From NCBI RefSeq assembly GCF_003075435.1, contig NZ_QCZJ01000001.1, positions 372,001-436,000 of the forward strand: a stretch of DNA of 64,000 bases, written 5' to 3'. The translations under genes were made by a program, and so were the position numbers. This document shows, one piece after another, positions 9,633-25,883 of the stretch. Positions within the stretch are counted from its first letter, which is position 1; the number at the start of each line of letters is the position of its first letter. The notes under the pieces were generated by a model. The model ran no database searches. It saw only the letters and a program-made list of their open reading frames with translations, and was not told where the DNA came from. This stretch comes from Terrimonas sp. (GTDB taxonomy: Bacteria > Bacteroidota > Bacteroidia > Chitinophagales > Chitinophagaceae).

Positions 9633-9925
9633 TACATCCTCCTTTTTTTATTAAAATTCAAAACCCTCCTGCTGCACCGGTCATAAAGCTGTGTATAGAA
9701 ATTTTTTCCACTTACTGCTTCCTGCTCATAAATTTACTTACAATTTAATGAATATTGCAACTGTTATCCTTATTTTCCTTTTAATGCCAGCACCACAAAT
9801 CAAAAAGTAAGTAGGGATTTCATTCCCTTCGCCGGGCTTTGCGGTGGGATCGCAAAGACTGTGAGCGGTTGTAAGTATTCCGGGAGGCCAAGTTATCAGC
9901 AAACGCATCAGGGTGCTGTTGCGGA

Positions 9926-10127
9926 ATTCATAGTAGTACAAAAGCTCAATCAAAGCTCCCCCGGAAACATGAAGTTTCACGCAAAGCACGCAGGGGAGCA
10001 ACGGACGCAAAGGAACTGTGACTGAGTTTAATCAGCATTTTGCACCTACGCCGGCAGTAGCATTCCAATAGCTGAAGTCACAGTAGTACAAAAGCTCAAT
10101 CAGGGCTCCTTCCGGAAACATGGGGGT
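9926..10127. repeat. ~40-bp direct repeat pair in a gene-free stretch
   Basis: A block beginning AGTAGTACAAAAGCTCAATC and ending CCGGAAACATG occurs at about 9931-9971 and again at about 10083-10123, 152 bp apart, with few differences. The surrounding 9660-10190 contains no gene I can support. A hairpin GTACTTTTTTG / CAAAAAAGTAC sits at 10153-10180. Confidence 0.6.
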
Positions 10128-10190
10128 AATATGTTTCCGGGGTCTTTTTTTGGTACTTTTTTGGACAAGCAAAAAAGTACAGAAGAAACA

Positions 10191-10515
10191 TCATTGTTTT
10201 TGAAGCCGATCCTTCAAAACCCCTGCTACATGATTCACCTCCCTCACATCCACCAGGTGGGCCGCCTCCAGCAGCTTCACCAGCAGGAAGTAAGCTGCCA
10301 TTATATTAATGCTATGCCTTCCCCTGCTGTGCAACAGCGCCGATCCCACCAGTTTTTCCCAATGCTGTATCCATTGCTGCAGTGGCAGGAATACAAAAAA
10401 TTGCCTGAATGCCCGGTAGGGATCACCAAACTCTTTTTTAGAAAGGCAGTGCGGAAGATCACTCCACTCCCCCGAGTTGGCATAGAGACTGCGATAGTAC
10501 CCCCGGGGTTCATAA
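10191..10515 (-). pseudogene. C-terminal remnant of a homologue of the 28008-28616 gene
   Basis: Read on the minus strand, this stretch encodes about 107 residues aligned with the C-terminal half of the 28.0-kb protein: CLSKKEFGDPYRAF, then a diverged middle, then KLLEAAHLVDVREV, ending in TGA at 10191. Upstream of about 10515 the frame meets a stop and similarity fades, so only the 3' part remains. It is more diverged than the other fragments in the window, so it is probably an older copy. If the full gene is an immunity gene, this is an orphan immunity relic. Confidence 0.75.
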
Positions 10516-10781
10516 GATCACCCTCCGTAATATGGATAGAGCTGCGATGTAAAGTTTATGATGATTCTTATGCTTAAGGAAGCGACATCGAATATACATT
10601 GGTGAAATTCAGTAAGCCTGATTCAATCGCTATGCGAGGTGTCTTCGCCTCGTATGCGTATATTATCGCCTCCTGGCGACGTTCTTGGCATTTTCTCCGG
10701 TTTAGTAACACTGCATACAAAAGTTTAGTTACTTTGGCAATACTTTGCCATTTTCTATACAATTCGATTTAAAAAGGACTA

Positions 10782-14569: not shown

Positions 14570-15271
14570 ATGGCAGAATTTCTAACTACTCGAGAGACAG
14601 TTGCCAAAATTGAAGATATCATTCGGAACGCTCAATCTACATTAGTATTAATCTCGCCTTACTGGCAGCTATCCGAAAATTGGTTTGTTCGTATTAGCGA
14701 TGCAGCTAAAAGAAATACGCCAGTAACTATTTTAATTGGCAAAGATTCTAAGCCTGAATGCGTAGGCAATTTACTTTTACTAAAAAATATTGCCATTAAA
14801 CACCTGAAGAACTTACATGCGAAATGTTATTTTAACCAAGATAGCATGGTCATCAGCTCCATGAATATGTATGAGTTCTCTGAGAAGAACCGAGAAATGG
14901 GCATATATATCAGACGAGATACAGACAAACAATTATTTGAGGTTGCAAAAAAGGAAGCAGAACATTTTTTTCAACATGCAACACCTCTTTCATCGTTGCA
15001 ATCAGAAGATTCAATCAATTTCACTGCAAAAATTCCAAGTATTGGAATGTATGTAAAAAAAGACGGTGTTTGCATAAGGTGTAGTAATAATCTAAAATAC
15101 AATCCTGAAAAACCTTTATGTACTAACTGTTATAATGCGTGGTCAAAATGGAAAGATGGGCTATACCCCGAGAAATATTGCCACTCCTGCGGAAAGAAAG
15201 CAGATACAAGCATAGCATATCCAGAATGTTATAGCTGCTACAAATCAAACTCTAAAATGATTGCCGGTTAG
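14570..15271 (+). CDS. Phospholipase-D-like protein with C-terminal zinc-binding motifs
   Basis: The 233-residue protein has a single PLD-like domain (residues 1-140). It opens TLVLISPYWQLSENW, and the motif region LHAKCYFNQDSMVISSMNMY supplies the His and Lys of HxK followed by the asparagine-rich strand. One HxK per chain implies a dimer. The C-terminal 70 residues hold four Cys pairs (CIRC, CTNC, CHSC, CYSC), probably two zinc ribbons. Proteins of this type often accompany restriction or defence genes and may act on nucleic acids. It lies 0.5 kb before the left direct repeat of the R-M island. Activity is inferred from family only. Confidence 0.82.
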   Translation: MAEFLTTRETVAKIEDIIRNAQSTLVLISPYWQLSENWFVRISDAAKRNTPVTILIGKDSKPECVGNLLLLKNIAIKHLKNLHAKCYFNQDSMVISSMNMYEFSEKNREMGIYIRRDTDKQLFEVAKKEAEHFFQHATPLSSLQSEDSINFTAKIPSIGMYVKKDGVCIRCSNNLKYNPEKPLCTNCYNAWSKWKDGLYPEKYCHSCGKKADTSIAYPECYSCYKSNSKMIAG

Positions 15272-15347
15272 TAAGATATTTTTTTAAAACCCCTATGCAG
15301 GCAGTCCATTAGTAATCTCCTGCTAACTCTATCTATACCAATAAAAT

Positions 15348-15450
15348 CTTTGATATTTCCAAAAAACATCTTACCTTAAAGCATACTTATAATCCTTCAA
15401 TCTTTTGACTGCCTGCCGCTACCCGAACCCAATTCAAAAAATATAAGTGA
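15348..15450. repeat. Left ~100-bp direct repeat flanking the R-M island
   Basis: This segment shares most of its bases and its orientation with 23953-24053, including an identical core CCTTCAATCTTTTGAC and later ACCCGAACCCAATT. The two copies bracket the methyltransferase and restriction genes. No other gene lies between 15272 and 15847. Confidence 0.75.
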
Positions 15451-15546
15451 CTTTGTAACTGTGCTCCAAATGTAAGCTGGAGTAGCAATGCCTCTTTGTA
15501 TATTCGTTTTTGAGCAAATGCAGGAGAGTGTTACAAAAAGAGCTTT

Positions 15547-15632
15547 TATAGTTTCTCAACCGCACGAGCCTTGAAAGCGACACATTTATTTATTTAAGAA
15601 GAAGTGTTTCGTGAGACACGAACCACGGGGGA
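15547..15632. repeat. Dispersed repeat with hairpin, copy 2
   Basis: Matches 12160-12245. The hairpin here is TTCGTG-AGA-CACGAA (15608-15622), differing from copy 1 by a compensating C:G to T:A change, and is again followed by CCACGG. Confidence 0.6.
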
Positions 15633-15830
15633 TGTTGAGACGTTATCTAAAATTACTAAGGATACTTGAGACGGATTTGGGGGTAAGTTGTTGCTAAAAG
15701 TCAAAATGAAGTTTTATTTACACAGAATGAATAATGGAATTAATAGGATAAGCCGAATATTGTGAAATGATATATATAATACTGATTATCAATTATTTTA
15801 GATAATTTATCAACATGAGTGCATAACTTA

Positions 15831-15838
15831 TATTTTTG
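15831..15838 (+). promoter_or_regulatory. Possible Bacteroidota -7 element for the four-gene cassette
   Basis: TATTTTTG fits the TAnnTTTG consensus of the Bacteroidota housekeeping sigma factor. It would place the transcript start near 15843, a few bases before the first ATG. No clear -33 box is seen, so this is tentative. Confidence 0.3.
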
Positions 15839-15847
15839 CATTCGTTT

Positions 15848-16915
15848 ATGAATAATAAAAAAATGCAGGCTGTTGATTTATTTTCGGGAGCAGGCGGCAT
15901 GTCTGAAGGCGCAATTGCTGCAGGTATAGATGTAAGACTTGCCGTTGAAAAGGATCGATTTGCAGGAATTACCTTTCAAGCAAACCATCCCAATACGGTT
16001 CTCTTCAATGATGATATAAGAAAGCTGGATTTAGATCAAAGCATTTTCGATAATGCTCATTTAAAAGTTTTATTTGGAGGCCCTCCTTGTCAAGGATTTT
16101 CTACATCAAATCAAAAAACTCGAAATAAAACAAATAATGAAAACTGGCTTTTTAAAGAATATATAAGAATTGCCCGAATTTTAAAACCAGACTGGATAAT
16201 TGTTGAAAATGTAAAAGGACTTGTAGAAACAGAATCTGGATTTTTTTTTGAAGCGATAAATAAAGAATTAAAAAAGCTGGGATACAACTCTAGTTTCGCG
16301 ATTTTGAATGCAGCTGATTTTGGGGTACCCCAAGTAAGAAATAGAGTGTTCATCGTCGGTTCGCTACATGGAATAAGTTTTAAATTTCCTAAGCCTACTG
16401 TTTCAAAATATTTAACGGTAAAGGAAGCGTTGTCAGATCTTCCTGCTCTTCCCAATGGAGCAGATTTCGATGAACTTGACTATAGATGTGATACCGAAAC
16501 AAAGTATCAAAAAGTGATGCGAGGCACAGAAAAAACATCTCGCAATAATTTAGTGACACGAAATAACAATCTCGTACTTAAACGATATCAGCATATCCCT
16601 GAAGGAGGTAATTGGGAAAATATTCCTGCAAGGTTAATGAAGAATTATAAAGATCACACACGTTGCCATACAGGTATATATTTTAGGCTGAAACAAAACG
16701 AGCCTTCTGTAGTTATAGGAAATTATAGAAAAAATATGCTTATTCATCCTATTGAGAACAGAGGCTTAAGTGTTAGAGAGGCAGCTAGACTACAATCTTT
16801 CCCAGATAAATTTCGTTTTTTCGGAAGTATTGGGTTTCAACAACAACAAGTTGGAAATTCCGTACCTCCTCTACTAGCAAAAGCGATCTTCGAACAATTA
16901 AAGAATCAAAGCTGA
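15848..16915 (+). CDS. DNA cytosine-5 methyltransferase (first gene of four-gene cassette)
   Basis: I choose ATG 15848; ATG 15863 (MQAVDLFSGAGG) is an equally good alternative, while a TTG at 15836 is unlikely. The 355-residue protein has all C5-MTase motifs in order: I DLFSGAGGMSEG, IV GGPPCQGFS with the catalytic Cys, VI VENVKG, VIII QVRNRVFIVG, a target-recognition region, and X QQVGNSVPP. It would methylate C5 of cytosine in a short site that cannot be predicted. No endonuclease is adjacent; instead three coupled genes follow on the same strand, the next after 3 bases. The region is more AT-rich than the flanks, suggesting transfer. Confidence 0.95.
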   Translation: MNNKKMQAVDLFSGAGGMSEGAIAAGIDVRLAVEKDRFAGITFQANHPNTVLFNDDIRKLDLDQSIFDNAHLKVLFGGPPCQGFSTSNQKTRNKTNNENWLFKEYIRIARILKPDWIIVENVKGLVETESGFFFEAINKELKKLGYNSSFAILNAADFGVPQVRNRVFIVGSLHGISFKFPKPTVSKYLTVKEALSDLPALPNGADFDELDYRCDTETKYQKVMRGTEKTSRNNLVTRNNNLVLKRYQHIPEGGNWENIPARLMKNYKDHTRCHTGIYFRLKQNEPSVVIGNYRKNMLIHPIENRGLSVREAARLQSFPDKFRFFGSIGFQQQQVGNSVPPLLAKAIFEQLKNQS

Positions 16916-16918
16916 GAT

Positions 16919-17983
16919 ATGTCTTGGACTAAACAGAAAATTGAATCAAAACTACACGAAAAACTAAGTAAAGATTTCCTGGAATCTCCTTCTGATGTTG
17001 ATAAATTTTATGGATACTACACAAGCGCACGAGACTTGTTGATATCAGATAATATATATAAAGACATCAAGTTTATTCAAAAAGATCTGTCAGATCATGG
17101 TGAAGATCATATTATGGATGTAATGAGATATGCAGAAAAATTGCTTGGGAATGAAATTGAAGACTTACACGCTATCCAAATTTACTTTATATGTATGCTA
17201 ATACTCTTCCATGATGTAGGTAATCTGACTGTTGATAGAATGAGGCATCATGAGCAAGACGTGATCAGAGAAATATATGACTATATAAGGGGTAGAAAGA
17301 GAGAATTCGATGAAGAGAGAATATTAGTTCCAGAAGTTGCCAGTAAGCACTCTGGAACAGCAAGCGATGGTTCAAAGGATACAATAAATGAGTTGTCAAT
17401 ATTGCCACCACATTTATTTGGTTGCGAAATTTACTCAAAAAAAAGTGCGGCTCTTTTGCGATTTGCTGATGAATTGGCGGAAGGTCCACACAGAACATCT
17501 ATTTTTATGAATAAATATTATAATTATCCGTATTCCCAAAATTCAATTATATACCATAAATACGCCGAAATCACTAAGACTAACGTTGACAGGCAAAATG
17601 AGCGAATTTGTTTAACATATAATTTTTCGATCCAAGCAAACAAGGGAGTCATTTCCGAGAAAACTCATGTCGAATTTATTGATCTTTTCCGATTTACAAT
17701 TGGAAGAATGTTAAAACTTGAAGCGGAAAGGAAGTATTGTAAATATTATTGTGATTGGCTAAGTCCTTTCAAAAAAACACATGTCACCTTTAATTTTCTT
17801 ATAGAAAACATAGACGATGAAAGATCCAAAGCGATAAGGATAGATCCGGGTATTTCTGAATTATTCCTTGATGACCTAACTCTACCTGTTGGAGAGAATC
17901 CAGATAAATTTTTTTCCCATAATAATAAATACTCTCCCGAGGAAGTATACAATTCTATAAAAATTGAATTTAATGGAAAATAA
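16919..17983 (+). CDS. HD-domain phosphohydrolase-like protein of the four-gene cassette
   Basis: The 354-residue protein has an HD fold in residues about 55-190. HGEDHIMDVMRYAEKLL supplies the first His, ILFHDVGNL the signature His-Asp, and the later HHEQDVI and SKHSG further candidate ligands. HD proteins of the HGEDHI...HDVGN type occur in several bacterial conflict systems, where they may cleave nucleotides or phosphodiesters. The C-terminal 150 residues are unfamiliar. It starts 3 bases after the methyltransferase stop and its last 11 bases overlap the ATPase start, so the genes are translationally coupled. Substrate unknown. Confidence 0.8.
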   Translation: MSWTKQKIESKLHEKLSKDFLESPSDVDKFYGYYTSARDLLISDNIYKDIKFIQKDLSDHGEDHIMDVMRYAEKLLGNEIEDLHAIQIYFICMLILFHDVGNLTVDRMRHHEQDVIREIYDYIRGRKREFDEERILVPEVASKHSGTASDGSKDTINELSILPPHLFGCEIYSKKSAALLRFADELAEGPHRTSIFMNKYYNYPYSQNSIIYHKYAEITKTNVDRQNERICLTYNFSIQANKGVISEKTHVEFIDLFRFTIGRMLKLEAERKYCKYYCDWLSPFKKTHVTFNFLIENIDDERSKAIRIDPGISELFLDDLTLPVGENPDKFFSHNNKYSPEEVYNSIKIEFNGK

Positions 17984-19724
17984 ACTACCCATAAATCCAT
18001 TTGAGTTTGAGGCTGCTGTAAATTTTGCTACAGATGAACTCATTGAATACTTTGTTGAAGATCATAATTATTCCAGGTTTATCCAATCTAGTAGAAATAT
18101 TTTCATAGTAGGCGAAAGGGGATGTGGTAAATCCATGACCCTTTTATATAATTCGTATCAAAAGCAATTGAGAAAGGCTGAAAAAGAAAATAAAGAATTT
18201 GATTATTCAAAAATAGGAATATATATACCATGTACAAACGTTCTTTTTTTCAAAAAAGAATACGAACTTGTAAATAATGATTTCAAGGTATCTGTTCTTT
18301 CGGAGCATTTTTTTGTTCTATCCATTGCACACGAGATGGTGAATGTTTTGTCACTAATTCCAAACCTTTTCGATACACAAAAGGAAGAAGAAATACGATC
18401 AGATCTAAAATATATTCTAAATATTGATGTGCCGAATGGAGCGCCGATTTTTAAAGGGCTAGTTAAGTATTTTCAGAAGCTTAGTAATGAAACTCAAAAT
18501 GAAATAAATAATTCCGATGGCTCATTCAGTGAAAAGTGCGTTTCTTTTTTTTCATTGATAATTCCTCTAATAAGAATAGTAAAAAGTATTGAACATTTGA
18601 ATAGGTTACATTTTTTATTTCTTATTGACGATGCACATGATTTAAACTCTTATCAAGTGAAAGTTTTAAATTCATGGATAGCCTATAGAGACCATACTGA
18701 CTTTAGCTTTAAAGTAGCAGTGGCTAAGGTTAGACCACATATGTATATTACTGCGACCGGAAGTTCAATTATTGAAGGACATGACTTTCTTAAAATAGAT
18801 ATGGAGAAACCTTATCAAAACAAGTTCTCTGATTTTGGGCTTTGGGCAAAAGACATTGTTAAGCGAAGACTTGAAAAATTTGGAGCAAACAATACAGATG
18901 TTTACACTTTCTTTCCGATAAATCCTAAAGTTGAATCTGATTTTATTTCTGCCGAACAAGTTATAAGAAAGAGAGCAGAGGAACTATATAAAAATCAAGA
19001 TAATGCTGCAAAAAAGATTAATGATTATGTTTATAAATATGCCAGAGCAGAATATTTTAGAACTCGCTCATCTAAAGCGAATTTACCTCAGTACTCCGGA
19101 TGGGAAACCATTGTTCATCTTTCAACAGGAGTTGTTCGAAACTTACTTCAGCCATGCTATTGGATGTTCGATAAAGAAGTTTCCAAATTAAATGATGAGA
19201 ATAAAGATCCAAAAGCGATATCAAGTATTCGTCCTAGCTATCAAGATGAGGTGATTAAAGAACAGAGTAATCAGTTATGGAATAAAATAGAAAATGATTT
19301 GTTTAATAATATTGATAATTGTTCAACCAAACAAGGTGCAGAAATTAAGAATTTATTTGAACAGATAACATTACTATTTAAAGAACGGCTCCTAAATGAA
19401 AACTCTTCAGAACCAAGGGCTATTACTTTTTCCATATCTGCTTGGAGCGACCTAACGAAAGAACAGTCTGCAGAAATGGATGAATGGATAAGAATCTCTA
19501 GAGAAGCATTAATTCTCTATGATAGGAAATCATCCGCAAAAGAATTTGGCGAAAAGGAGACAATTTATATACCTAATAGAATATTGTTCCCTAGTAGGGG
19601 GCTCGATGTAATAGGCCAGCATTCAAGGGTTTCTATTAAAGCTAAAGAGCTTTATGATGCAGCAACCAAGAACAAAAAAATAAACGCCAAAGAAGTCACA
19701 CAGCAAACTTTATTTGATTTATGA
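17973..19724 (+). CDS. Large P-loop ATPase (ORC/CDC6-like) of the four-gene cassette
   Basis: I choose ATG 17973 (MENKLPINPFEFEAAV), which overlaps the HD gene by 11 bases; a TTG at 17964 is less likely. The 583-residue protein has Walker A GERGCGKS at about residue 50 and Walker B FLFLIDDAHD at about 220, where the acidic pair is followed by His-Asp. TATGSS looks like a sensor-1 strand. The overall form recalls AAA+/STAND ATPases of the ORC/CDC6 kind, which bind DNA or act as switches. The C-terminal 250 residues are helical and unfamiliar. Its stop overlaps the next start (ATGA). It is the likely motor or switch of the cassette. Confidence 0.8.
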   Translation: MENKLPINPFEFEAAVNFATDELIEYFVEDHNYSRFIQSSRNIFIVGERGCGKSMTLLYNSYQKQLRKAEKENKEFDYSKIGIYIPCTNVLFFKKEYELVNNDFKVSVLSEHFFVLSIAHEMVNVLSLIPNLFDTQKEEEIRSDLKYILNIDVPNGAPIFKGLVKYFQKLSNETQNEINNSDGSFSEKCVSFFSLIIPLIRIVKSIEHLNRLHFLFLIDDAHDLNSYQVKVLNSWIAYRDHTDFSFKVAVAKVRPHMYITATGSSIIEGHDFLKIDMEKPYQNKFSDFGLWAKDIVKRRLEKFGANNTDVYTFFPINPKVESDFISAEQVIRKRAEELYKNQDNAAKKINDYVYKYARAEYFRTRSSKANLPQYSGWETIVHLSTGVVRNLLQPCYWMFDKEVSKLNDENKDPKAISSIRPSYQDEVIKEQSNQLWNKIENDLFNNIDNCSTKQGAEIKNLFEQITLLFKERLLNENSSEPRAITFSISAWSDLTKEQSAEMDEWIRISREALILYDRKSSAKEFGEKETIYIPNRILFPSRGLDVIGQHSRVSIKAKELYDAATKNKKINAKEVTQQTLFDL

Positions 19725-20620
19725 AATACGTTATAATTTCAGTCCTCAGTTGGGAGGAGCGGTTTATACAAGGGTTAAAACAAAATATATCAAATCACCC
19801 CGGGAGCATGCTTCTGATGTTCAAATATAATAATCCGCTTACCCACGAGTGGAAGAAAGCGAACTTGGAAGAAACTAGGAGCCTCATGGAGGGAAAGCTG
19901 GTTGAGGTTGAAATTGATCCAGCAAAACCGTATGAAAATTGGTTTATTTTTCGAGACCGTATTGTTAGTAACTGTAAAAATTCTATCGTTCTGGTAGATA
20001 TTACAACTATGACGCGTGAAGCTATATGGCTGACATTATATAATTGCAGACTTGTCTCTTCTGAAACTCATTTTATTTATTTTAGACCTCAAGGATATAC
20101 CACTGAATGGATAAGCCGAGATCCAGGAAAACCACGTTTGCTATACAAAATGTCAGGAATTGCTCAATTAGGACTTCCCACATTACTAATTGTCACTGGA
20201 GGCTACGATATACAACGTTTAGACAGCCTCATTTATAACTTTGAACCAAAAACAACTATTTTATATTTTCAGGATAGCGAAAATGAGCGTAACCGTGATA
20301 TAGTTGAGAAGTGTCAAGAATTATTTAAATCTAAGTACAATGTAAGATTGATATATAAATATAATCCTTATGACATTCAAAAATCGTATAATCAAATTGT
20401 TGAAAAACTGTCAGAAATTGAAATTGGTACCAATGGAACTTATTTTGACAATTATAATATTATTTTGAACTCTCTTGGAGCAAAGACCTCAGCATTAACA
20501 TTGTTTAAATTGTGGCTTAATTATCCGCAGCTTGCGTTAAGTTATATACCCTCTAAAGAGTATAATAAGGAATATTCATATGGAACAGGTGAAGCATATT
20601 TCGGTAAAGTAGAAGAATAG
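19721..20620 (+). CDS. Rossmann-like protein, unknown function, last gene of the four-gene cassette
   Basis: The 299-residue protein starts in the stop codon of the ATPase gene (ATGA), so its translation is coupled. I do not recognise a named family. Its layout suggests two Rossmann-like halves: MKYVIISVLSWEERF opens one strand, NSIVLVDITTMTREAIW looks like a strand with a conserved Asp and Thr, and the second half starts LPTLLIVTGGYDIQRL with a strand/turn that could bind a nucleotide. That is reminiscent of CARF-like sensors, but the likeness is weak. No signal peptide or membrane segment is seen. I infer a sensor or effector role from position only. Confidence 0.65.
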   Translation: MKYVIISVLSWEERFIQGLKQNISNHPGSMLLMFKYNNPLTHEWKKANLEETRSLMEGKLVEVEIDPAKPYENWFIFRDRIVSNCKNSIVLVDITTMTREAIWLTLYNCRLVSSETHFIYFRPQGYTTEWISRDPGKPRLLYKMSGIAQLGLPTLLIVTGGYDIQRLDSLIYNFEPKTTILYFQDSENERNRDIVEKCQELFKSKYNVRLIYKYNPYDIQKSYNQIVEKLSEIEIGTNGTYFDNYNIILNSLGAKTSALTLFKLWLNYPQLALSYIPSKEYNKEYSYGTGEAYFGKVEE

Positions 20621-20917
20621 GCATGCTTCACAATATTCATTATCCTTAGTTGTTCCTGTAATGGCTTTGCAAGTAGTTATTAGCTTTATTTATATAATGC
20701 CATTCTATGAAGCCCTTATATAGTTAGCCATAGGATTCGAAAAAGGTCAAACCTATAAGCTTTGCAGGCGATTTTATCTGAGGACTTCAATAATATTTTG
20801 GCATTGCATTTCTCGTACTTGTACAGCTTATCCAATATTTATCCTTCCTGCAAACTCCAACCCAGAAAAGAGCCGCAATTTTACCAACACACCCAGCCAT
20901 TTGACTAATTTTACGAG
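20621..20917. other. Spacer between the four-gene cassette and the R-M module
   Basis: About 300 AT-rich bases without a gene. It presumably contains the promoter of the vsr-MTase-endonuclease operon, but no element is clear. Confidence 0.5.
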
Positions 20918-21325
20918 ATGGACGTATTAACCAAAGAACAGAGACGGAAAAATATGCAGGCCATTCGCAGCAAAGAGACAAAGGACGAAGTTCTTTTGGC
21001 TAAAGCCCTTTGGCAACGAGGGCACCGTTACCGAAAAAATGATAAGACTGTTTTTGGCAAGCCTGATCTGACTTTTAAGCGATATAAGCTTGCCATCTTC
21101 GTAGACAGTGAATATTTTCACGGAAAAGACTGGGATACTGAAAAACACCGTATTCAGACCAATCGGGACTTTTGGTGGGCTAAAATTGAGGGTAATATGA
21201 AGAGGGACAGTCGGGTAAATGAAGAACTTGTGAAAACGGGGTGGAAAGTTTTACGGTTTTGGAGTAAAGAAATACGAAAAAATTTAGCAAATTGCATAAA
21301 TAAAATTGAAGAAAATTTAATATAG
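20918..21325 (+). CDS. vsr: Very-short-patch repair endonuclease (Vsr)
   Basis: The 135-residue protein matches Vsr: [19 protein letters not shown] at the N-terminus, [20 protein letters not shown] containing the catalytic Asp, and a C-terminal [13 protein letters not shown]. Vsr nicks next to T:G mismatches made when 5-methylcytosine deaminates. It usually travels with a C5-methyltransferase, as here: the MTase gene starts 5 bases after the stop. Unlike E. coli Vsr, it has a single cysteine, near the C-terminus, so the structural zinc site of that enzyme is absent. The preferred mismatch context should be the site of the neighbouring MTase. Confidence 0.92.
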
Positions 21326-21330
21326 TACGA

Positions 21331-22551
21331 ATGGCGACTTATAGTAAAATAAAGGAGAAACTTAATATAAATGTGGACAAGCACTTAAATGACGGCTTTG
21401 CCCACCTGACCCATTATTGGCAGAACCACAAAAATGGCGTTTCTCAATATTTCAAGCCATCTGCAAAAGAGTATCTGTTCGAGGAGATTCTATCTGTTGT
21501 TGAAGAACCTGAACAACTTTATATCCCGTTAAAATTTGATGTGCCATTTCCGCCTAAAGTAAACCCTAAGTTCAAATTTATTGACCTTTTTGCAGGTATT
21601 GGCGGTATCCGCCTGGCGTATCAAAATTTAGGAGGCAAATGCGTTTTTACAAGCGAATGGAACAACTTTGCCAAGAAAACTTACGAAGCTAATTTTGGAG
21701 AAGTGCCGTTCGGCGACATTACCAAAATCAGCGAAAAAGCAATTCCCGACCATGACGTTCTATTGGCAGGCTTTCCCTGCCAGCCGTTTTCAATAGCAGG
21801 TGTTTCAAAGAAAAACGCATTAGGGAAAAAACACGGCTTTTTGGATGAAACGCAGGGAACATTATTTTTTGATATCGCAAGAATTTTGGAACATAAAAAG
21901 CCAAAGGCTTTTATGTTGGAAAATGTCAAAAACCTTGTTTCACACGACAAAGGCAACACATTTAAAGTTATTAAAAATACGTTGACAGAGTTAGGTTATT
22001 CAATCCATTATCAGGTTTTGGACGGTAAACATTTTGTGCCTCAGCATCGTGAAAGGATAATAGTCGTAGGTTTCAGAAATAACATCTTCAAGGGCAAAGA
22101 AAACTTTCAATTTCCCAAACTTCCAGACCCAACCGCAAAAATTAAAGACATCCTTGAAGAAGAAATAGAAACTAAATACACCTTGACCGATAAACTTTGG
22201 GACTACTTACAAAACTACGCTGCAAAGCATAAGGCACAAGGCAACGGGTTTGGGTTCGGGATGACAGATTTAAACGGAATTTCAAGAACAATTTCTGCAC
22301 GTTATTACAAAGACGGCTCGGAAATTCTGATACCGCAGCATGGTATCAACCCAAGACGACTGACACCAAGAGAATGTGCAAGATTACAAGGCTTCCCGGA
22401 CGAGTTTGTTATTCCCGTTTCAGACAATCAGGCTTACAGACAATTTGGAAATTCCGTAACTGTTCCTCTTATTCAGGCTGTGGGCAAACAATTAGTAAAA
22501 TCATTATTAGCAATAGATGAATCTGCAAAATCTCAAAAAGCTATTTGCTGA
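21331..22551 (+). CDS. DNA cytosine-5 methyltransferase of the MvaI-type R-M module
   Basis: The 406-residue protein has an N-terminal extension of about 85 residues, then C5-MTase motifs: [31 protein letters not shown] with the catalytic Cys, [31 protein letters not shown], and [12 protein letters not shown]. It is clearly a different enzyme from the one at 15848. The context (Vsr before, MvaI-family endonuclease after with a 35-base overlap) makes it the protective methyltransferase for a CCWGG- or CCSGG-like site. That specificity is inference from the partner enzyme. Confidence 0.95.
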
Positions 22552-23833
22552 TTATGGCTGCCAGAAAATTTATGTAAAAAAACTTTCACCCAACGATAAC
22601 TCTAAAAATCAGGTTTATTTAGGTGGTAGTTTTGAGATATTGAATATTCTGCCAATCGCTGAAATCAAAACGGAAGAAGCGGGCGATTGGAACAGAGAGC
22701 GTTTTAAAGCATCAATCAAATTTTCGTGGATTGGTGATGATGGAAATATTTATCCGGCCCCTAACTCACAACTGATACTTTATCCGAAATATCCCGAAGT
22801 AAGATTCTCAGGCTTTTTAGCCAAGTGTGAAAATCCGCCTTCATATCTAATGACACGGCGTTTAGCTGACAGATTATTGTTTTTAAGCGTTTCTAAAGCA
22901 GGAATTATATTAGGTTATGTTGTTGCACCAGATTCTGAAATGGCACAGGAGTTTAACTGCATTATAGCTGATGATGAAGTTGGTGTTTTCAAAGTTATTG
23001 AACTTCCACAAGCTGTAAACAACAAAGAGAAGTTGCTTGTAGAGCTTTACCGCATTTATCAATTGAATTGGATTACGTCCAAAAGGTTAGATAGGAATGG
23101 AAATATTTTACCATGCATTTCTTCAAATTGCGGTGGTTACACTTTAGAAGCTGAATTAGGGATTACACCAAACGGGTACTCTGAACCTGATTATTTAGGC
23201 TGGGAAGTAAAACAATTTGGTGTTAAAAACTTCGACCGTATTACTACCTCGGTTATTACGCTAATGACGCCCGAGCCTACAGAAGGAATTTACAAAACGC
23301 AGGGAATAGAGGTATTTCTAAATAAATACGGCTATTTTGACAAAACAGGCAGAGAGGATCGAATAAACTTTGGTGGCGTTCACAAAGTAGGATTGCGGCA
23401 CTCTTTAACAAACCTTGAGCTGCAACTGATTGGCTTTGACAATGCAAGTGGCAAAATCAGAAATTCAAATGGCCGTATTGTATTGGTTGACAATCAGGGC
23501 AACGAAGCTGCAGCCTGGAGTTTTGCATCACTTCTTTTACATTGGAACAGAAAACACAATCAGGCCTGCTACGTTCCATCACTATCAAACAAGATAAACG
23601 AACGACAATACAAGTACGGGAACAAAGTTATTTTAGGTACAGGAACAGACTTTCAGCTTTTCCTAAAGCAAATGGCAATAGGAAATATTTATTACGATCC
23701 TGGCATAAAAATGGAAAATCTTTCAATTAAGCCAAAGGTTAAGAGGCGAAGCCAGTTCAGGATCAGATCACTATATTTACGTAATCTGTATAATAACAGT
23801 GAAATCGTAACTCTATCCCAAACCAACGTATAA
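22517..23833 (+). CDS. MvaI/BcnI-family type II restriction endonuclease
   Basis: The 438-residue protein matches the MvaI/BcnI family through its C-terminal half. [11 protein letters not shown] leads to the catalytic strand [14 protein letters not shown], where PD-x4-ExK is the nuclease motif. [25 protein letters not shown] and the closing YYDPGIK and [12 protein letters not shown] follow. Family members cut CCWGG (MvaI) or CCSGG (BcnI) as monomers. An N-terminal region of about 200 residues precedes this core. Its ATG lies 35 bases inside the methyltransferase gene, so expression is coupled and toxin-like escape is limited. The gene looks intact. Confidence 0.93.
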
Positions 23834-23952
23834 GCAGACTCATTACGGCATACAAAAACTAACACACAAATCGTACAAAAGATCCTAGCCCTTTGTACTG
23901 ATATATGTTTAGCTAGCAACAATGCAGAAAATATGGTCTGCCACAATTAAGT

Positions 23953-24053
23953 ATTTGATATTATCAAAAAACATCTTATCTTGAAACACGCTTAATCCTT
24001 CAATCTTTTGACAGCCTGCCACTACCCGAACCCAATTTTAAAAATTTTAGTGG
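23953..24053. repeat. Right ~100-bp direct repeat flanking the R-M island
   Basis: Second copy of the 15348-15450 segment, same orientation, 120 bases after the endonuclease stop. The remaining 24054-24335 holds no gene I can support, only AT-rich sequence leading to the Fic/Doc gene. Confidence 0.75.
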
Positions 24054-24335
24054 TTAGAAACATGCGCCAGTATTAGCTGAAACTGTGATGTCTTTGTATG
24101 TGCCTGATCTTATAGGAAACTGCAAAAATGAAGCATGCGGTTGGAAGCGGTGAAGCTATTCTGATTACTCGTATACAAACGCTTAGAAACATCTAAATAC
24201 GGATACAGAGATTGTATTGGCGATATAAACCAATGTAAAATGTATACCCTAAATGCTTTTTTAGTACTTTGTAATTTTAATTATTTCGTGTAATAGCATG
24301 AATATAAACGTTGTGCGTCACTATAAAAAACTTCC

Positions 24336-25205
24336 ATGTTCGACAGTCAAATAATTCAGCAAGAGTTTGAAAGAAATCTAGCCTTAATCGAAGACGACCC
24401 CTTTGATTCTGAAAAAATGATTTCTTATAAAGAAATTTTAAAAGCTCATTTCTTAATAATTGACTTCTTTTCATCAAACACAGAAAGTATCACTTATGGT
24501 GTAAAGGACTTTAATTTGTTAGGTTCAACATTGGGACGTCAACTTGCCGGTTATGGAGGCTTTCAAAAATGGAAAAAGCCAGAGGAGATTTGCGCGACCC
24601 TATTCTATGGTATTGTAAAGAACCACGCATTCCATGATGCAAACAAGCGAACAGGACTTCTGACATTAATATATCACTTGTTAAAGTATGGACGTACTAT
24701 TGATACTCAGCAAAAAGAATTTGAAAAACTTGCTTTGTGCGTTGCCGCTGACCGATTAACAGATTTCAAAAATTTCAAAGAAAGGAGATATCAGAAATTA
24801 GAAGATAAGGAAATTATTTTTATTTCAGATTTTATAAGACGCAATACAAGAGAAATTGAAAAAAAATATTATCCGGTTACATATCAAGAATTCGACAAGT
24901 TATTAAAGAGGCAAGGATTTCACTTTGAAATTTCAAATGAAGGGTTTGTCGATGTTGTTGGAGAAGCTACCCAAAAGAAGTTTTTTGGATTAATTGAACA
25001 GAGATATCAAAAAAGGTATATTCAAGTCGGCTTCCCTGGTTGGAAAAGACAAATCAATCCAAAAGCAGTAAAAGAAATTTTAAAAGCCACTGGATTGACG
25101 GCTGAAAATGGAATTGATTCGAAAGTATTTTTTTGGGATGCTGAACCATTGACGGGTCTAATTGATCAATATAAGAATCCGTTAATTAGGCTGAAAGACA
25201 AATAG
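24336..25205 (+). CDS. Fic/Doc-family protein with C-terminal extension
   Basis: The 289-residue protein has a Doc-type Fic core at residues about 60-130: KNHAFHDANKRTGL matches HxFxDANKRTxx, the form seen in Doc toxins (a phosphotransferase on EF-Tu in the phage P1 system). The C-terminal part from residue 190 opens VTYQEFDKLLKRQGFHFE, loosely like a HicA-type beta-alpha module, and continues YIQVGFPGWKRQINPKAVKE. I am unsure of that fold. No clear (S/T)xxxE(G/N) inhibitory motif and no Phd-like gene are seen next to it. It may be an orphan toxin or a Fic enzyme controlled in another way. Confidence 0.85.
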   Translation: MFDSQIIQQEFERNLALIEDDPFDSEKMISYKEILKAHFLIIDFFSSNTESITYGVKDFNLLGSTLGRQLAGYGGFQKWKKPEEICATLFYGIVKNHAFHDANKRTGLLTLIYHLLKYGRTIDTQQKEFEKLALCVAADRLTDFKNFKERRYQKLEDKEIIFISDFIRRNTREIEKKYYPVTYQEFDKLLKRQGFHFEISNEGFVDVVGEATQKKFFGLIEQRYQKRYIQVGFPGWKRQINPKAVKEILKATGLTAENGIDSKVFFWDAEPLTGLIDQYKNPLIRLKDK

Positions 25206-25376
25206 CAAACGCATAACATTTTCCATACTGATGGGCGTTTTCACACACCAGTAAAAAAGTAAAATCAATCAGACCTGCAGTGTTTTCTAAAGAGATTACT
25301 GTAAAAAGAATTATACGACTAAAAAACAATAACCAGCTCACAGCATTCAGTTGTTAATAATTCCAAAACTCAATAC

Positions 25377-25883
25377 ATGATACAGCCTGAAGATATATTT
25401 AAAAAAAAAGATTTCGTTGACTCCACATACTCATATAAACTCGCAAGGGTTTATATAAGTGAAAAATATAAGGAAATACTTTTTGTTCCTATGGGGAAAG
25501 TGAATGAGGGTACCTATATGGAAACATTTGAAATAATAAGAGATCAATGGCCTTGTGATTTTGGAGAAATGGAAATTAATCTCGAAAACATGCTGAATAA
25601 ATATAATCCCCAAATGGAGAGACATGAGGATTTTTGGCCTGCATATAAAGCAAGTAAGGCAAAATCTCGAAAAGCGTTTACTGAACATTATATACTGCTA
25701 CGGCTTGAATCTGATTATAAAAATAGCTATGGCGAAGGTGAAGCAGAAAGAATAAATGTTAGGGCCCAGGCTAGTCCGCTTGAAACAAGTTATTATCTTA
25801 TTGCACAAAAGCACTTAATAGACACTAATTTAGCACAAGCAGTAATTGATATTTTTAATGCATGTATGAAAATTCGATCTTAA
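25377..25883 (+). CDS. Hypothetical protein, 168 residues
   Basis: I do not recognise this protein. It starts MIQPEDIFKKKDFVDSTYSY, has no signal peptide or membrane segment, and is of mixed charge with about 10% aromatic residues. YISEKYKEILFVPMGKVNEG could form a beta hairpin. Codon use and AT content match the Fic/Doc gene 170 bases upstream. It could be an immunity or antitoxin partner, but nothing in the sequence shows it. Confidence 0.5.
   Translation: MIQPEDIFKKKDFVDSTYSYKLARVYISEKYKEILFVPMGKVNEGTYMETFEIIRDQWPCDFGEMEINLENMLNKYNPQMERHEDFWPAYKASKAKSRKAFTEHYILLRLESDYKNSYGEGEAERINVRAQASPLETSYYLIAQKHLIDTNLAQAVIDIFNACMKIRS

What the first reader, a model, noticed from the sequence alone, without database searches (positions are those of the whole stretch)
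15848..20620. Four coupled genes (C5-MTase, HD protein, ATPase, Rossmann-like protein): candidate undescribed defence system
Seen: 3-base gap, 11-base overlap and ATGA overlap join the four genes on one strand in an AT-rich stretch bounded by direct repeats. Known: HD proteins and ORC/CDC6-type ATPases occur in conflict systems, and C5-methyltransferases mark self DNA. Inference: methylation labels self, the Rossmann-like protein senses, the ATPase switches, and the HD protein destroys a nucleotide or nucleic acid. The set does not match BREX, DISARM, Druantia, Zorya or other systems I can recall.
Basis: partly seen in the sequence, partly recalled or inferred. Interest (0 to 1): 0.85.

Follow-up and report, generated by a model that had tools for sequence, protein, structure and literature searches.

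The report
Methylase-guarded nucleotide-attacking defence operon
Four joined bacterial genes form a widespread, horizontally moving set, probably a defence in which DNA methylation marks the cell's own DNA and an enzyme of a nucleotide-destroying family is switched on against invaders; its parts already have names in databases, but some relatives carry their own spare thymidylate synthase, which may be a new clue to how it works.

Summary
In detail: C5-methyltransferase, HD, ATPase and Rossmann genes lie at 15848-20620, joined as stated. They are not undescribed: they match Pfam HD-CE and ORC-CDC6-like and PADLOC CARF6, by recall described for predicted nucleotide-targeting immune systems. The unit is real: of 57 loci from many phyla, CARF6 follows the ATPase in 57, HD precedes it in 52, and the same methylase subfamily lies within the fetched stretch in 48. 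The ATPase was not found in 37 of 37 other relatives. HD, ATPase and CARF6 co-evolve; the methylase reassorts but keeps one conserved target-recognition region. Distant versions swap HD for calcineurin-like or PRTase-CE genes, and mostly carry N6/N4 methylases. This favours an R-M-like logic: methylation marks self, ATPase-CARF6 switches, a nucleotide-attacking effector acts. Trigger and substrate are inferred. Possibly new: a dedicated thymidylate synthase (ThyA or ThyX) adjoins the module in 12 of 63 loci and is extra in 9 of 10 genomes searched; the window lacks it. Verdict: new member of a known, experimentally open kind.

The parts
15848..16915 (+). C5-cytosine DNA methyltransferase (355 aa); motifs complete (PCQ, ENV, QxRxR; motif names recalled)
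   Evidence: Pfam DNA_methylase 1.8e-68; P80, C81, E120-N121-V122, Q162, R164, R166 in 57 of 57 rows; nearest solved relative DNMT1, the match including part of the target-recognition region
16919..17983 (+). HD-CE phosphohydrolase (354 aa), predicted effector; invariant H60, H64, H98-D99, H110, H144, D184
   Evidence: Pfam HD-CE 1.5e-16, 61.3 bits against cut-off 27; those residues invariant in 47 of 47 rows of A5 (56-57 of 58 in the set, which holds fragments); model pLDDT 93.5; weak matches to GppA/PPX HD domains and class I PDEs
17973..19724 (+). ORC/CDC6-type AAA+ ATPase (583 aa), Walker A GERGCGKS, Walker B LIDDA; predicted switch and DNA-binding subunit
   Evidence: Pfam ORC-CDC6-like 4.5e-91; G47, R49, G50, G52, K53, D219, D220 in at least 64 of 68 rows
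19721..20620 (+). CARF6-family protein (299 aa), two tandem CARF-like Rossmann lobes; predicted sensor
   Evidence: PADLOC CARF6 4e-26; AlphaFold2 pLDDT 94.6, pTM 0.93; Foldseek to the Csa3 CARF domain, probability 1.00, rmsd 3.2-4.4 over 124-133 columns, best rank 8
15339..15449 (+). left copy of a dispersed repeat of about 110 nt
23944..24052 (+). right copy of the same repeat; bounds the module plus the neighbouring Vsr/MTase/REase genes

Best explanation
A four-gene anti-invader module that works like a restriction-modification system with an abortive, nucleotide-attacking arm in place of a restriction enzyme. Step 1 (enzyme class shown, role inferred): the C5-MTase methylates a fixed short motif on host DNA. 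Step 2 (inferred): the ORC/CDC6-type ATPase and the CARF6 protein form a unit with the HD protein and survey DNA; unmethylated incoming DNA, with or without a nucleotide ligand in the tandem CARF lobes, changes the ATPase state. Step 3 (class shown, substrate inferred): the HD-CE hydrolase is released or activated and hydrolyses nucleotides, most likely dNTPs, so that replication of the invader and of the host stops. In some relatives a dedicated thymidylate synthase is added, which suggests that the thymidine pool is part of what is attacked, sensed or protected.
For: Gene classes and complete active sites. Of 57 loci: ATPase-CARF6 adjacent in 57, HD upstream in 52 (one of them split by an insertion, one cut by a contig end), same-subfamily MTase within the fetched stretch in 48, exact order MT-HD-ATP-CARF in 39; two more have the MTase just beyond the fetched stretch. 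HD, ATPase and CARF6 identity matrices correlate at 0.80-0.87, the MTase with them only at 0.15-0.23 (45 loci; Mantel), and MTases cross the two deep ATPase clades: three parts behave as one machine, the MTase as a partner acting through DNA. The MTase target-recognition region is 50% identical at core identity 0.35-0.45 (161 pairs) against 24% in control C5-MTases (76 pairs). In distant versions the effector becomes calcineurin-like or PRTase-CE and the MTase becomes D12 N6A or N6/N4 class, while ATPase and CARF6 stay. Sporadic: ATPase in 0 of 37 other relatives, 11 of them congeners. Sits beside a Vsr/C5-MTase/MvaI-type R-M set and a Fic gene.
Against: No activity is shown for any component. 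Nothing here shows that the absence of methylation is the trigger. 9 of 57 loci have no subfamily MTase in the fetched stretch: 3 begin at a contig end and were not followed (L048, L056, L093), 2 have it just beyond (L055, L082), 2 have it on another contig (L052, L080), and L054 and L086 had only weak C5-MTase hits genome-wide. Of the distant versions, L096 has no MTase next to the module and L099 is an ATPase without the partners. The MTase subfamily also occurs in a genome where no ORC-CDC6-like hit was found (L125), so its fixed target region is not a property of this module alone. L051 has MT-ATP-CARF without HD. The HD fold matches are weak (best E 4.7e-3), and CARF structures are not the top-ranked matches of the sensor.
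Confidence: 0.55

Rival explanations
1. Guard model: the MTase is bait. The ATPase-CARF6-HD unit monitors the MTase or its product, and fires when a phage blocks or degrades it (a DNA mimic, a SAM-depleting enzyme), rather than reading unmethylated sites on incoming DNA.
For: The MTase keeps a fixed target-recognition region across phyla and is present in most loci (48 of 57 in the fetched stretch), as bait would be.
Against: Distant versions use unrelated MTase classes with the same ATPase-CARF6 core, and the MTase tree is decoupled from the other three; a directly contacted bait should co-evolve with its guard.
Confidence: 0.12
2. The HD protein is an off-switch: it hydrolyses a signalling nucleotide that binds CARF6, so that the ATPase is the effector or controls another one.
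For: CARF-like sensor; the profile of the HD family aligns weakly with class I cyclic-nucleotide phosphodiesterases.
Against: HD is replaced at the same slot by calcineurin-like and PRTase-CE genes, families described as effectors (role by recall). No nucleotide cyclase model hit the ten genes 14570-25883.
Confidence: 0.15
3. The HD protein is a DNA or RNA nuclease, making this a plain restriction system with a novel ATP-driven nuclease complex.
For: HD domains can be nucleases (recalled: Cas3). The ATPase family is named after DNA-binding ORC/CDC6 proteins; its profile touches ORC5 only at E 0.8.
Against: The exchangeable partners at this slot are phosphoesterase and phosphoribosyltransferase families, and thymidylate synthase and dUTPase neighbours point to nucleotide pools.
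Confidence: 0.13
4. Not defence: an epigenetic or replication-control cassette of mobile elements, or a stabilising toxin-antitoxin-like cassette.
For: Sporadic distribution; found on plasmids; ORC/CDC6-type ATPase.
Against: Interchangeable effectors, CARF6 sensor and neighbouring R-M, Fic and AIPR genes fit defence better.
Confidence: 0.05

Closest known systems
HD-CE / Calcineurin-CE / PRTase-CE nucleotide-targeting effectors with ORC-CDC6-like ATPases (Pfam PF24391, PF24390, PF24389; by recall Nicastro et al. 2023, NAR 51:11479; paper not held; seen only as a reference entry)
   Same: HD and ATPase proteins match these families above cut-off; the same slot is filled by PRTase-CE and calcineurin-like genes in relatives.
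   Different: Whether that paper lists this exact four-gene set, the methylase reassortment or the thymidylate synthase cannot be checked here.
CARF6 family (PADLOC PDLC01917; by recall from the CARF classification of Makarova et al. 2020, not held)
   Same: 4e-26 over residues 5-298; 10 of 10 relatives scanned, swapped-effector versions included, hit CARF6 models. PADLOC also holds a fused CARF6-kinase-AAA model, and L097 here is such a fusion.
   Different: The PADLOC name lists three CARF units; the model here shows two clear Rossmann lobes. No nucleotide cyclase model hit the ten genes around it.
Clover (CloA dGTPase plus CloB; PMC12265719, abstract and passages read)
   Same: HD-type nucleotide hydrolase as defence effector, controlled by partners; nucleotide-pool logic with dTTP as a cue.
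   Different: No CloB-type nucleotidyltransferase among the four genes or six neighbours; regulation by ATPase, CARF6 and an MTase instead (inferred).
Ssp and other Orc/CDC6-containing systems (PMC10853773, passages read)
   Same: DNA-modification system in which an ORC/CDC6 AAA+ ATPase takes part.
   Different: Phosphorothioation rather than cytosine methylation; in the passages read, no HD or CARF6.
Thymidylate-synthase-bearing system validated by DefensePredictor (PMC13092281, section 5 and passages read)
   Same: A thymidylate synthase domain was newly validated in defence.
   Different: The terms 'HD domain', 'ORC' and 'CARF' do not occur in the text searched. Its figure legend lists thymidylate synthase among domains such as dNMP kinase and 5-hmdU DNA kinase, so it may be a DNA-modification system (inference).

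Membership tests
ORC-CDC6-like/HD-CE/CARF6 conflict module | ORC-CDC6-like ATPase with Walker A and B | tested here: met
   4.5e-91, 306.7 bits against 27; motif residues in at least 64 of 68 rows
ORC-CDC6-like/HD-CE/CARF6 conflict module | HD-CE hydrolase with complete HD metal site | tested here: met
   1.5e-16, 61.3 bits against 27; invariant H60, H64, H98, D99, H110, H144, D184 in 47 of 47
ORC-CDC6-like/HD-CE/CARF6 conflict module | CARF6 gene next to the ATPase | tested here: met
   adjacency in 57 of 57 loci
ORC-CDC6-like/HD-CE/CARF6 conflict module | effector hydrolyses nucleotides and protects from phage | not testable with these tools
   needs biochemistry and plaque assays
Type II restriction-modification | cognate restriction endonuclease in the operon | tested here: not met
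   no REase model among the four genes; the MvaI/BcnI REase at 22517-23833 lies beside its own MTase and Vsr
CBASS or type III CRISPR signalling | nucleotide cyclase making the CARF ligand | tested here: not met
   no cyclase model among ten genes 14570-25883; rest of genome not tested
Clover | CloB nucleotidyltransferase partner | tested here: not met
   no nucleotidyltransferase hit in the four genes or six neighbours
BREX, DISARM, Druantia | core helicase/PglZ/DrmAB/DruE genes | tested here: not met
   in PADLOC the four genes give MTase models (DruM, DrmMII, Type II and others; 25 of 63 shown) and CARF6, CasR and CARF3 models only

The most novel reading that the evidence does not exclude
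The module is a thymidylate-centred immune system. Its HD effector (or the PRTase-CE and calcineurin-like substitutes) strikes the thymidine-nucleotide pool to force a thymineless arrest, and a dedicated extra thymidylate synthase has been recruited at least three separate times (ThyA, long ThyX, short ThyX) as built-in immunity, recovery or pool sensor. The DNMT1-like methylase of fixed specificity is an exchangeable self-label read by the ATPase-CARF6 core.
Probability: 0.25. Interest if true: 0.75.

Novelty: new member of a known kind. Interest (0 to 1): 0.5.

Why it matters
It gives a compact, phylum-crossing example of how an R-M-like self label could be coupled to nucleotide destruction instead of DNA cutting, with exchangeable labels and exchangeable effectors around a lasting ATPase-CARF6 core. 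The thymidylate synthase link makes the substrate question directly testable (dTTP/dTMP first). The methylase is nearest, among solved structures, to DNMT1 and has a conserved target-recognition region, so one specificity measured once may hold for the whole family.

Tried and rejected
Rejected: an apparent CARF6-MTase fusion in L068 (646-aa ORF). A six-frame search showed the CARF6 gene in another frame (9857-10747); the ORF was over-extended.

Rejected: the direct repeats as module-specific ends; they are a dispersed genus-level repeat and bound a larger stretch.

Led nowhere: viral-contig scan with the single ATPase (no relative); the phage collection gave two records of one phage, one of which was read (L036, a distant PRTase-CE version); plasmids gave 7 records, of which 4 were read. 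Solved-structure profile searches of CARF6 (hits are to designed SAKe proteins over 17-18 residues, not meaningful) and of the ATPase (ORC5 at E 0.8). ATPase hits below full length were mostly short Walker-A matches (102 of 395 genomes at E<=1e-3, 25 over cut-off, of which 4, own included, are near full length). The first two tries at the target-recognition control split too few control MTases (8 of 29, 7 of 28); only (20 of 28; L125, which belongs to the module's MTase subfamily, and L127, the window's own, left out) is used.

Weak points of counts: the 57 loci come from one pattern scan seeded by 5 ATPases (145 stretches matched, 57 confirmed), so they favour this branch; L032, L058, L061 and L072 are closely related. 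Searches use 45 loci (near-copies L032, L061, L075 and broken L064 dropped). In one search, 103 of 106 neighbour genes were scanned (both L064 neighbours and L071:1-441 left out). Structure alignments hold 52 of 65 CARF6 and 47 of 56 HD sequences then in hand, window included.

Papers: search listings only for (two found none); passages of PMC12839542, PMC12265719, PMC10853773 and PMC13092281, and section 5 of the last in full. Nicastro 2023 and Makarova 2020 are recalled, not read. That thymidylate synthase has not been linked to this module in print rests only, and the most relevant paper is not held.
Full report
What is there. Four + strand genes at 15848-20620 are translationally coupled (3-nt gap, 11-nt overlap, ATGA overlap), at 31-35% G+C inside a low-G+C stretch of about 14-27 kb. 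They encode a C5-cytosine DNA methyltransferase (Pfam DNA_methylase 1.8e-68), an HD hydrolase (Pfam HD-CE 1.5e-16), an AAA+ ATPase (Pfam ORC-CDC6-like 4.5e-91) and a protein of the CARF6 family (PADLOC 4e-26). Of the four, NCBIfam has models matching only the methyltransferase. Their neighbours are a PLD-like gene (14570), a Vsr/C5-MTase/MvaI-BcnI REase set (20918-23833) and a Fic/Doc gene (24336).

Co-occurrence. A scan of genome contigs with a profile of five ATPases (A1) gave 57 loci from Bacteroidota, Pseudomonadota, Planctomycetota, Acidobacteriota, Gemmatimonadota, Ignavibacteriota, Bacillota and others (titles; many are MAG contigs). Profiles grown from the window proteins were used to label genes. 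Of 57 loci: 39 have exactly MT-HD-ATP-CARF; the CARF6 gene follows the ATPase in 57 (56 as called ORFs, L068 after a six-frame check); HD precedes it in 52 (split by a transposase-like gene in L064, cut by a contig end in L052); a same-subfamily MTase lies in the fetched stretch in 48. The five without HD are three loci whose ATPase starts at a contig end (L048, L056, L093), and L086 and L051, where a six-frame search found none. Median spacings are 0, -4 and -4 nt. Of four plasmid loci read (7 records matched), L032, L033 and L034 carry the same four genes and L035 has ATPase and CARF6 at the record's end. Six loci without the MTase in the fetched stretch were followed into their genomes: in L055 and L082 it lies on the same contig just beyond the stretch, in L052 and L080 on another contig, and L054 and L086 had only weak C5-MTase hits. 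The ATPase is in 1 of 12 genomes of the window's genus and in 1 of 38 relatives in all, the window's own: a sporadic, mobile pattern. The nearest relative is a Ferruginibacter contig (L037, ATPase 70-71% identical).

Two evolutionary behaviours. In the 45 loci with all four genes, mean pairwise identity is 0.53 for the MTase, 0.29 for HD, 0.33 for the ATPase and 0.27 for CARF6. Identity matrices of HD, ATPase and CARF6 correlate at 0.80-0.87; the MTase correlates with them at only 0.15-0.23 (Mantel MT-ATP 0.194 with 3 of 2000 permutations as high, so weak but not nil, against 0.856 and 0.872 with 0 of 2000). The ATPase tree has two deep clades at full support (12 and 33 rows); MTases cross them, for instance L042 (clade with the window) pairs with L073 (other clade) at 100/97. 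Yet the MTases keep one target-recognition region: length 137-140 in the 44 of 45 that could be split, and identity 0.50 when the catalytic core is 0.35-0.45 identical (161 pairs), against 0.24 in control C5-MTases (76 pairs; 20 of 28 controls could be split). The nearest solved structures are DNMT1 (2.1e-43, with separate matches to 5-183, 188-261 and 294-351), ahead of HaeIII and HhaI methylases, whose best stretches stop at about residue 199. My reading: HD, ATPase and CARF6 form one machine; the MTase talks to it through a DNA mark of fixed sequence, so copies can be exchanged. The MTase subfamily is not exclusive to this module: one control genome (L125) has it with other neighbours (L136) and had no ORC-CDC6-like hit.

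Slots. In more distant ATPase relatives the CARF6 partner stays (10 of 10 relatives scanned hit CARF6 models) while the other slots change: PRTase-CE in L094 and L036 (with a dUTPase_2 gene in L036), calcineurin-like phosphoesterase with wHTH-Calcineurin_assc in L095 and L096, and a kinase-like (below Pfam cut-off)-ATPase-CARF fusion in L097 with no separate effector gene seen. The MTase is a D12 N6-adenine enzyme in L095, N6/N4-class enzymes in L094, L097 and L098, and one annotated as a type I MTase subunit in L036 (not scanned). Against this, L096 has no MTase next to the module and L099 is an ATPase without the partners. An MTase is thus mostly retained across non-homologous replacements, which argues that the methyl mark itself is needed. 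The three -CE families were, by recall, described together as nucleotide-targeting effectors (Nicastro et al. 2023; not held here).

Structure. CARF6: AlphaFold2 on 52 sequences, pLDDT 94.6, two Rossmann-like lobes in one chain. One lobe matches Csa3 CARF structures, a cA4 complex among them, at probability 1.00 and rmsd 3.2-4.4 over 124-133 columns, best rank 8; the ranks above are whole-length matches with poor rmsd (cation-chloride cotransporter cytoplasmic domains, KaiC, a tandem universal stress protein). Invariant residues include R14, D93, Y120, G161, R166 and Y275; R14 and R166 lie just after the first strand of the two lobes. HD: pLDDT 93.5, weak matches to GppA/PPX HD domains (best E 4.7e-3), profile match to class I PDEs over residues 60-105 (E 0.0028), and an invariant metal-site residue set in 47 of 47. 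So the enzyme should act on a phosphate ester; the substrate is unknown.

Thymidylate synthase. The commonest recurrent neighbour is thymidylate synthase. Of 63 loci looked at (window, L032-L093), ThyX is in 9 (L032, L033, L046, L050, L053, L058, L061, L068, L072) and ThyA in 3 (L042, L051, L073). Among 103 immediate neighbour genes scanned, Thy1 has 9, AIPR and its N-terminal domain 4, Thymidylat_synt 3, Vsr 3, and the rest 2 or fewer. Counted on the 57 loci it is 10 of 57; the window has none. ThyA overlaps the MTase by 4 nt in all three; ThyX lies 2 nt upstream of the MTase (L046), overlaps CARF6 by 4 nt (L050), overlaps it convergently by 11 nt (L033), or lies 3-33 nt from the core in the other six. 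The enzymes look functional: the PCH cysteine and the GVPFN asparagine in 3 of 3 ThyA, the ThyX signature recognisable in 9 of 9 (L053 read by eye) (meaning of the motifs recalled). In 9 of 10 genomes searched another thymidylate synthase exists elsewhere, in L046's a weaker, partial match; the exception is the L050 genome, and the two plasmid hosts were not searched. The three module ThyAs are 75-79% identical to each other, and the other ThyAs of the three genomes are 69-70% identical to the L073 module copy. There are two ThyX lineages, a long one (44-97%) and a short one (L046-L050, 57%). So a dedicated enzyme was taken up at least three times. ThyA and ThyX share the reaction dUMP to dTMP (recalled), so that reaction is the probable reason. 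Against over-reading: it is absent from most loci; the ThyA-MTase pair seems to move together, and L051 has ThyA without HD, so the tie may be to the MTase or to the module as a whole rather than to HD.

Mechanism. Best supported: methylation marks self; ATPase-CARF6 senses foreign or unmarked DNA, perhaps with a nucleotide ligand; the HD-CE effector then attacks nucleotides. Shown here: gene classes, intact sites, co-inheritance, slot exchange, sporadic spread. Inferred: trigger, ligand, substrate, protection. Rivals are a guarded methylase, an HD off-switch, an HD nuclease and a non-defence cassette; each has a stated refuting test.

Novelty. The locus is a new member of a kind already named in Pfam and PADLOC, so 'undescribed' does not stand. 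To my knowledge it lacks an experimental name (recall; in the searches I saw no experimental report of this set, but most hits were seen as listings only). The methylase reassortment with a fixed target-recognition region and the repeated thymidylate synthase recruitment are the parts I did not find in print, with the caveat that the central paper could not be read.

Noticed in passing
window 20918-23833: Vsr, Dcm-like C5-MTase and MvaI/BcnI-type REase form a neighbouring R-M set. Vsr also lies next to or near the module in L033, L066 and L082.
   Followed up: partly
window 15339-15449 and 23944-24052; L132-L135, L141-L146: A dispersed intergenic repeat (about 110 nt, or a 65-70-nt part) with 6 matches in this genome and 24, those included, in 6 of 12 genomes of the genus; one copy lies just upstream of a 769-aa gene that looks SIR2-like (L138:1879-4188, by eye).
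   Followed up: partly
window 14570-15271: PLD-like domain with a C-terminal zinc-ribbon-like stretch, weakly similar to DISARM DrmC; role with the module unknown.
   Followed up: no
L055, L071, L075, L082, L088, L090: The module or its MTase sits beside a multi-gene set with AIPR and, by eye, a MORC-like ATPase and Z1/DUF4420-like genes; in L055 and L082 the MTase lies at the far end of that set, so the two systems may share one C5-MTase.
   Followed up: partly
L036:4356-8794: PRTase-CE version in a record labelled Acinetobacter phage, but flanked by host-like genes; it carries a dUTPase_2 gene directly upstream, another thymidine-pool enzyme.
   Followed up: partly
L064:5639-7986: HD gene split by a transposase-like gene on the other strand; described only.
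   Followed up: no
L136:1-10974 (G057): A same-subfamily C5-MTase (355 aa) lies in a run of long genes without the ATPase that were not identified; possibly another system using the same label.
   Followed up: no
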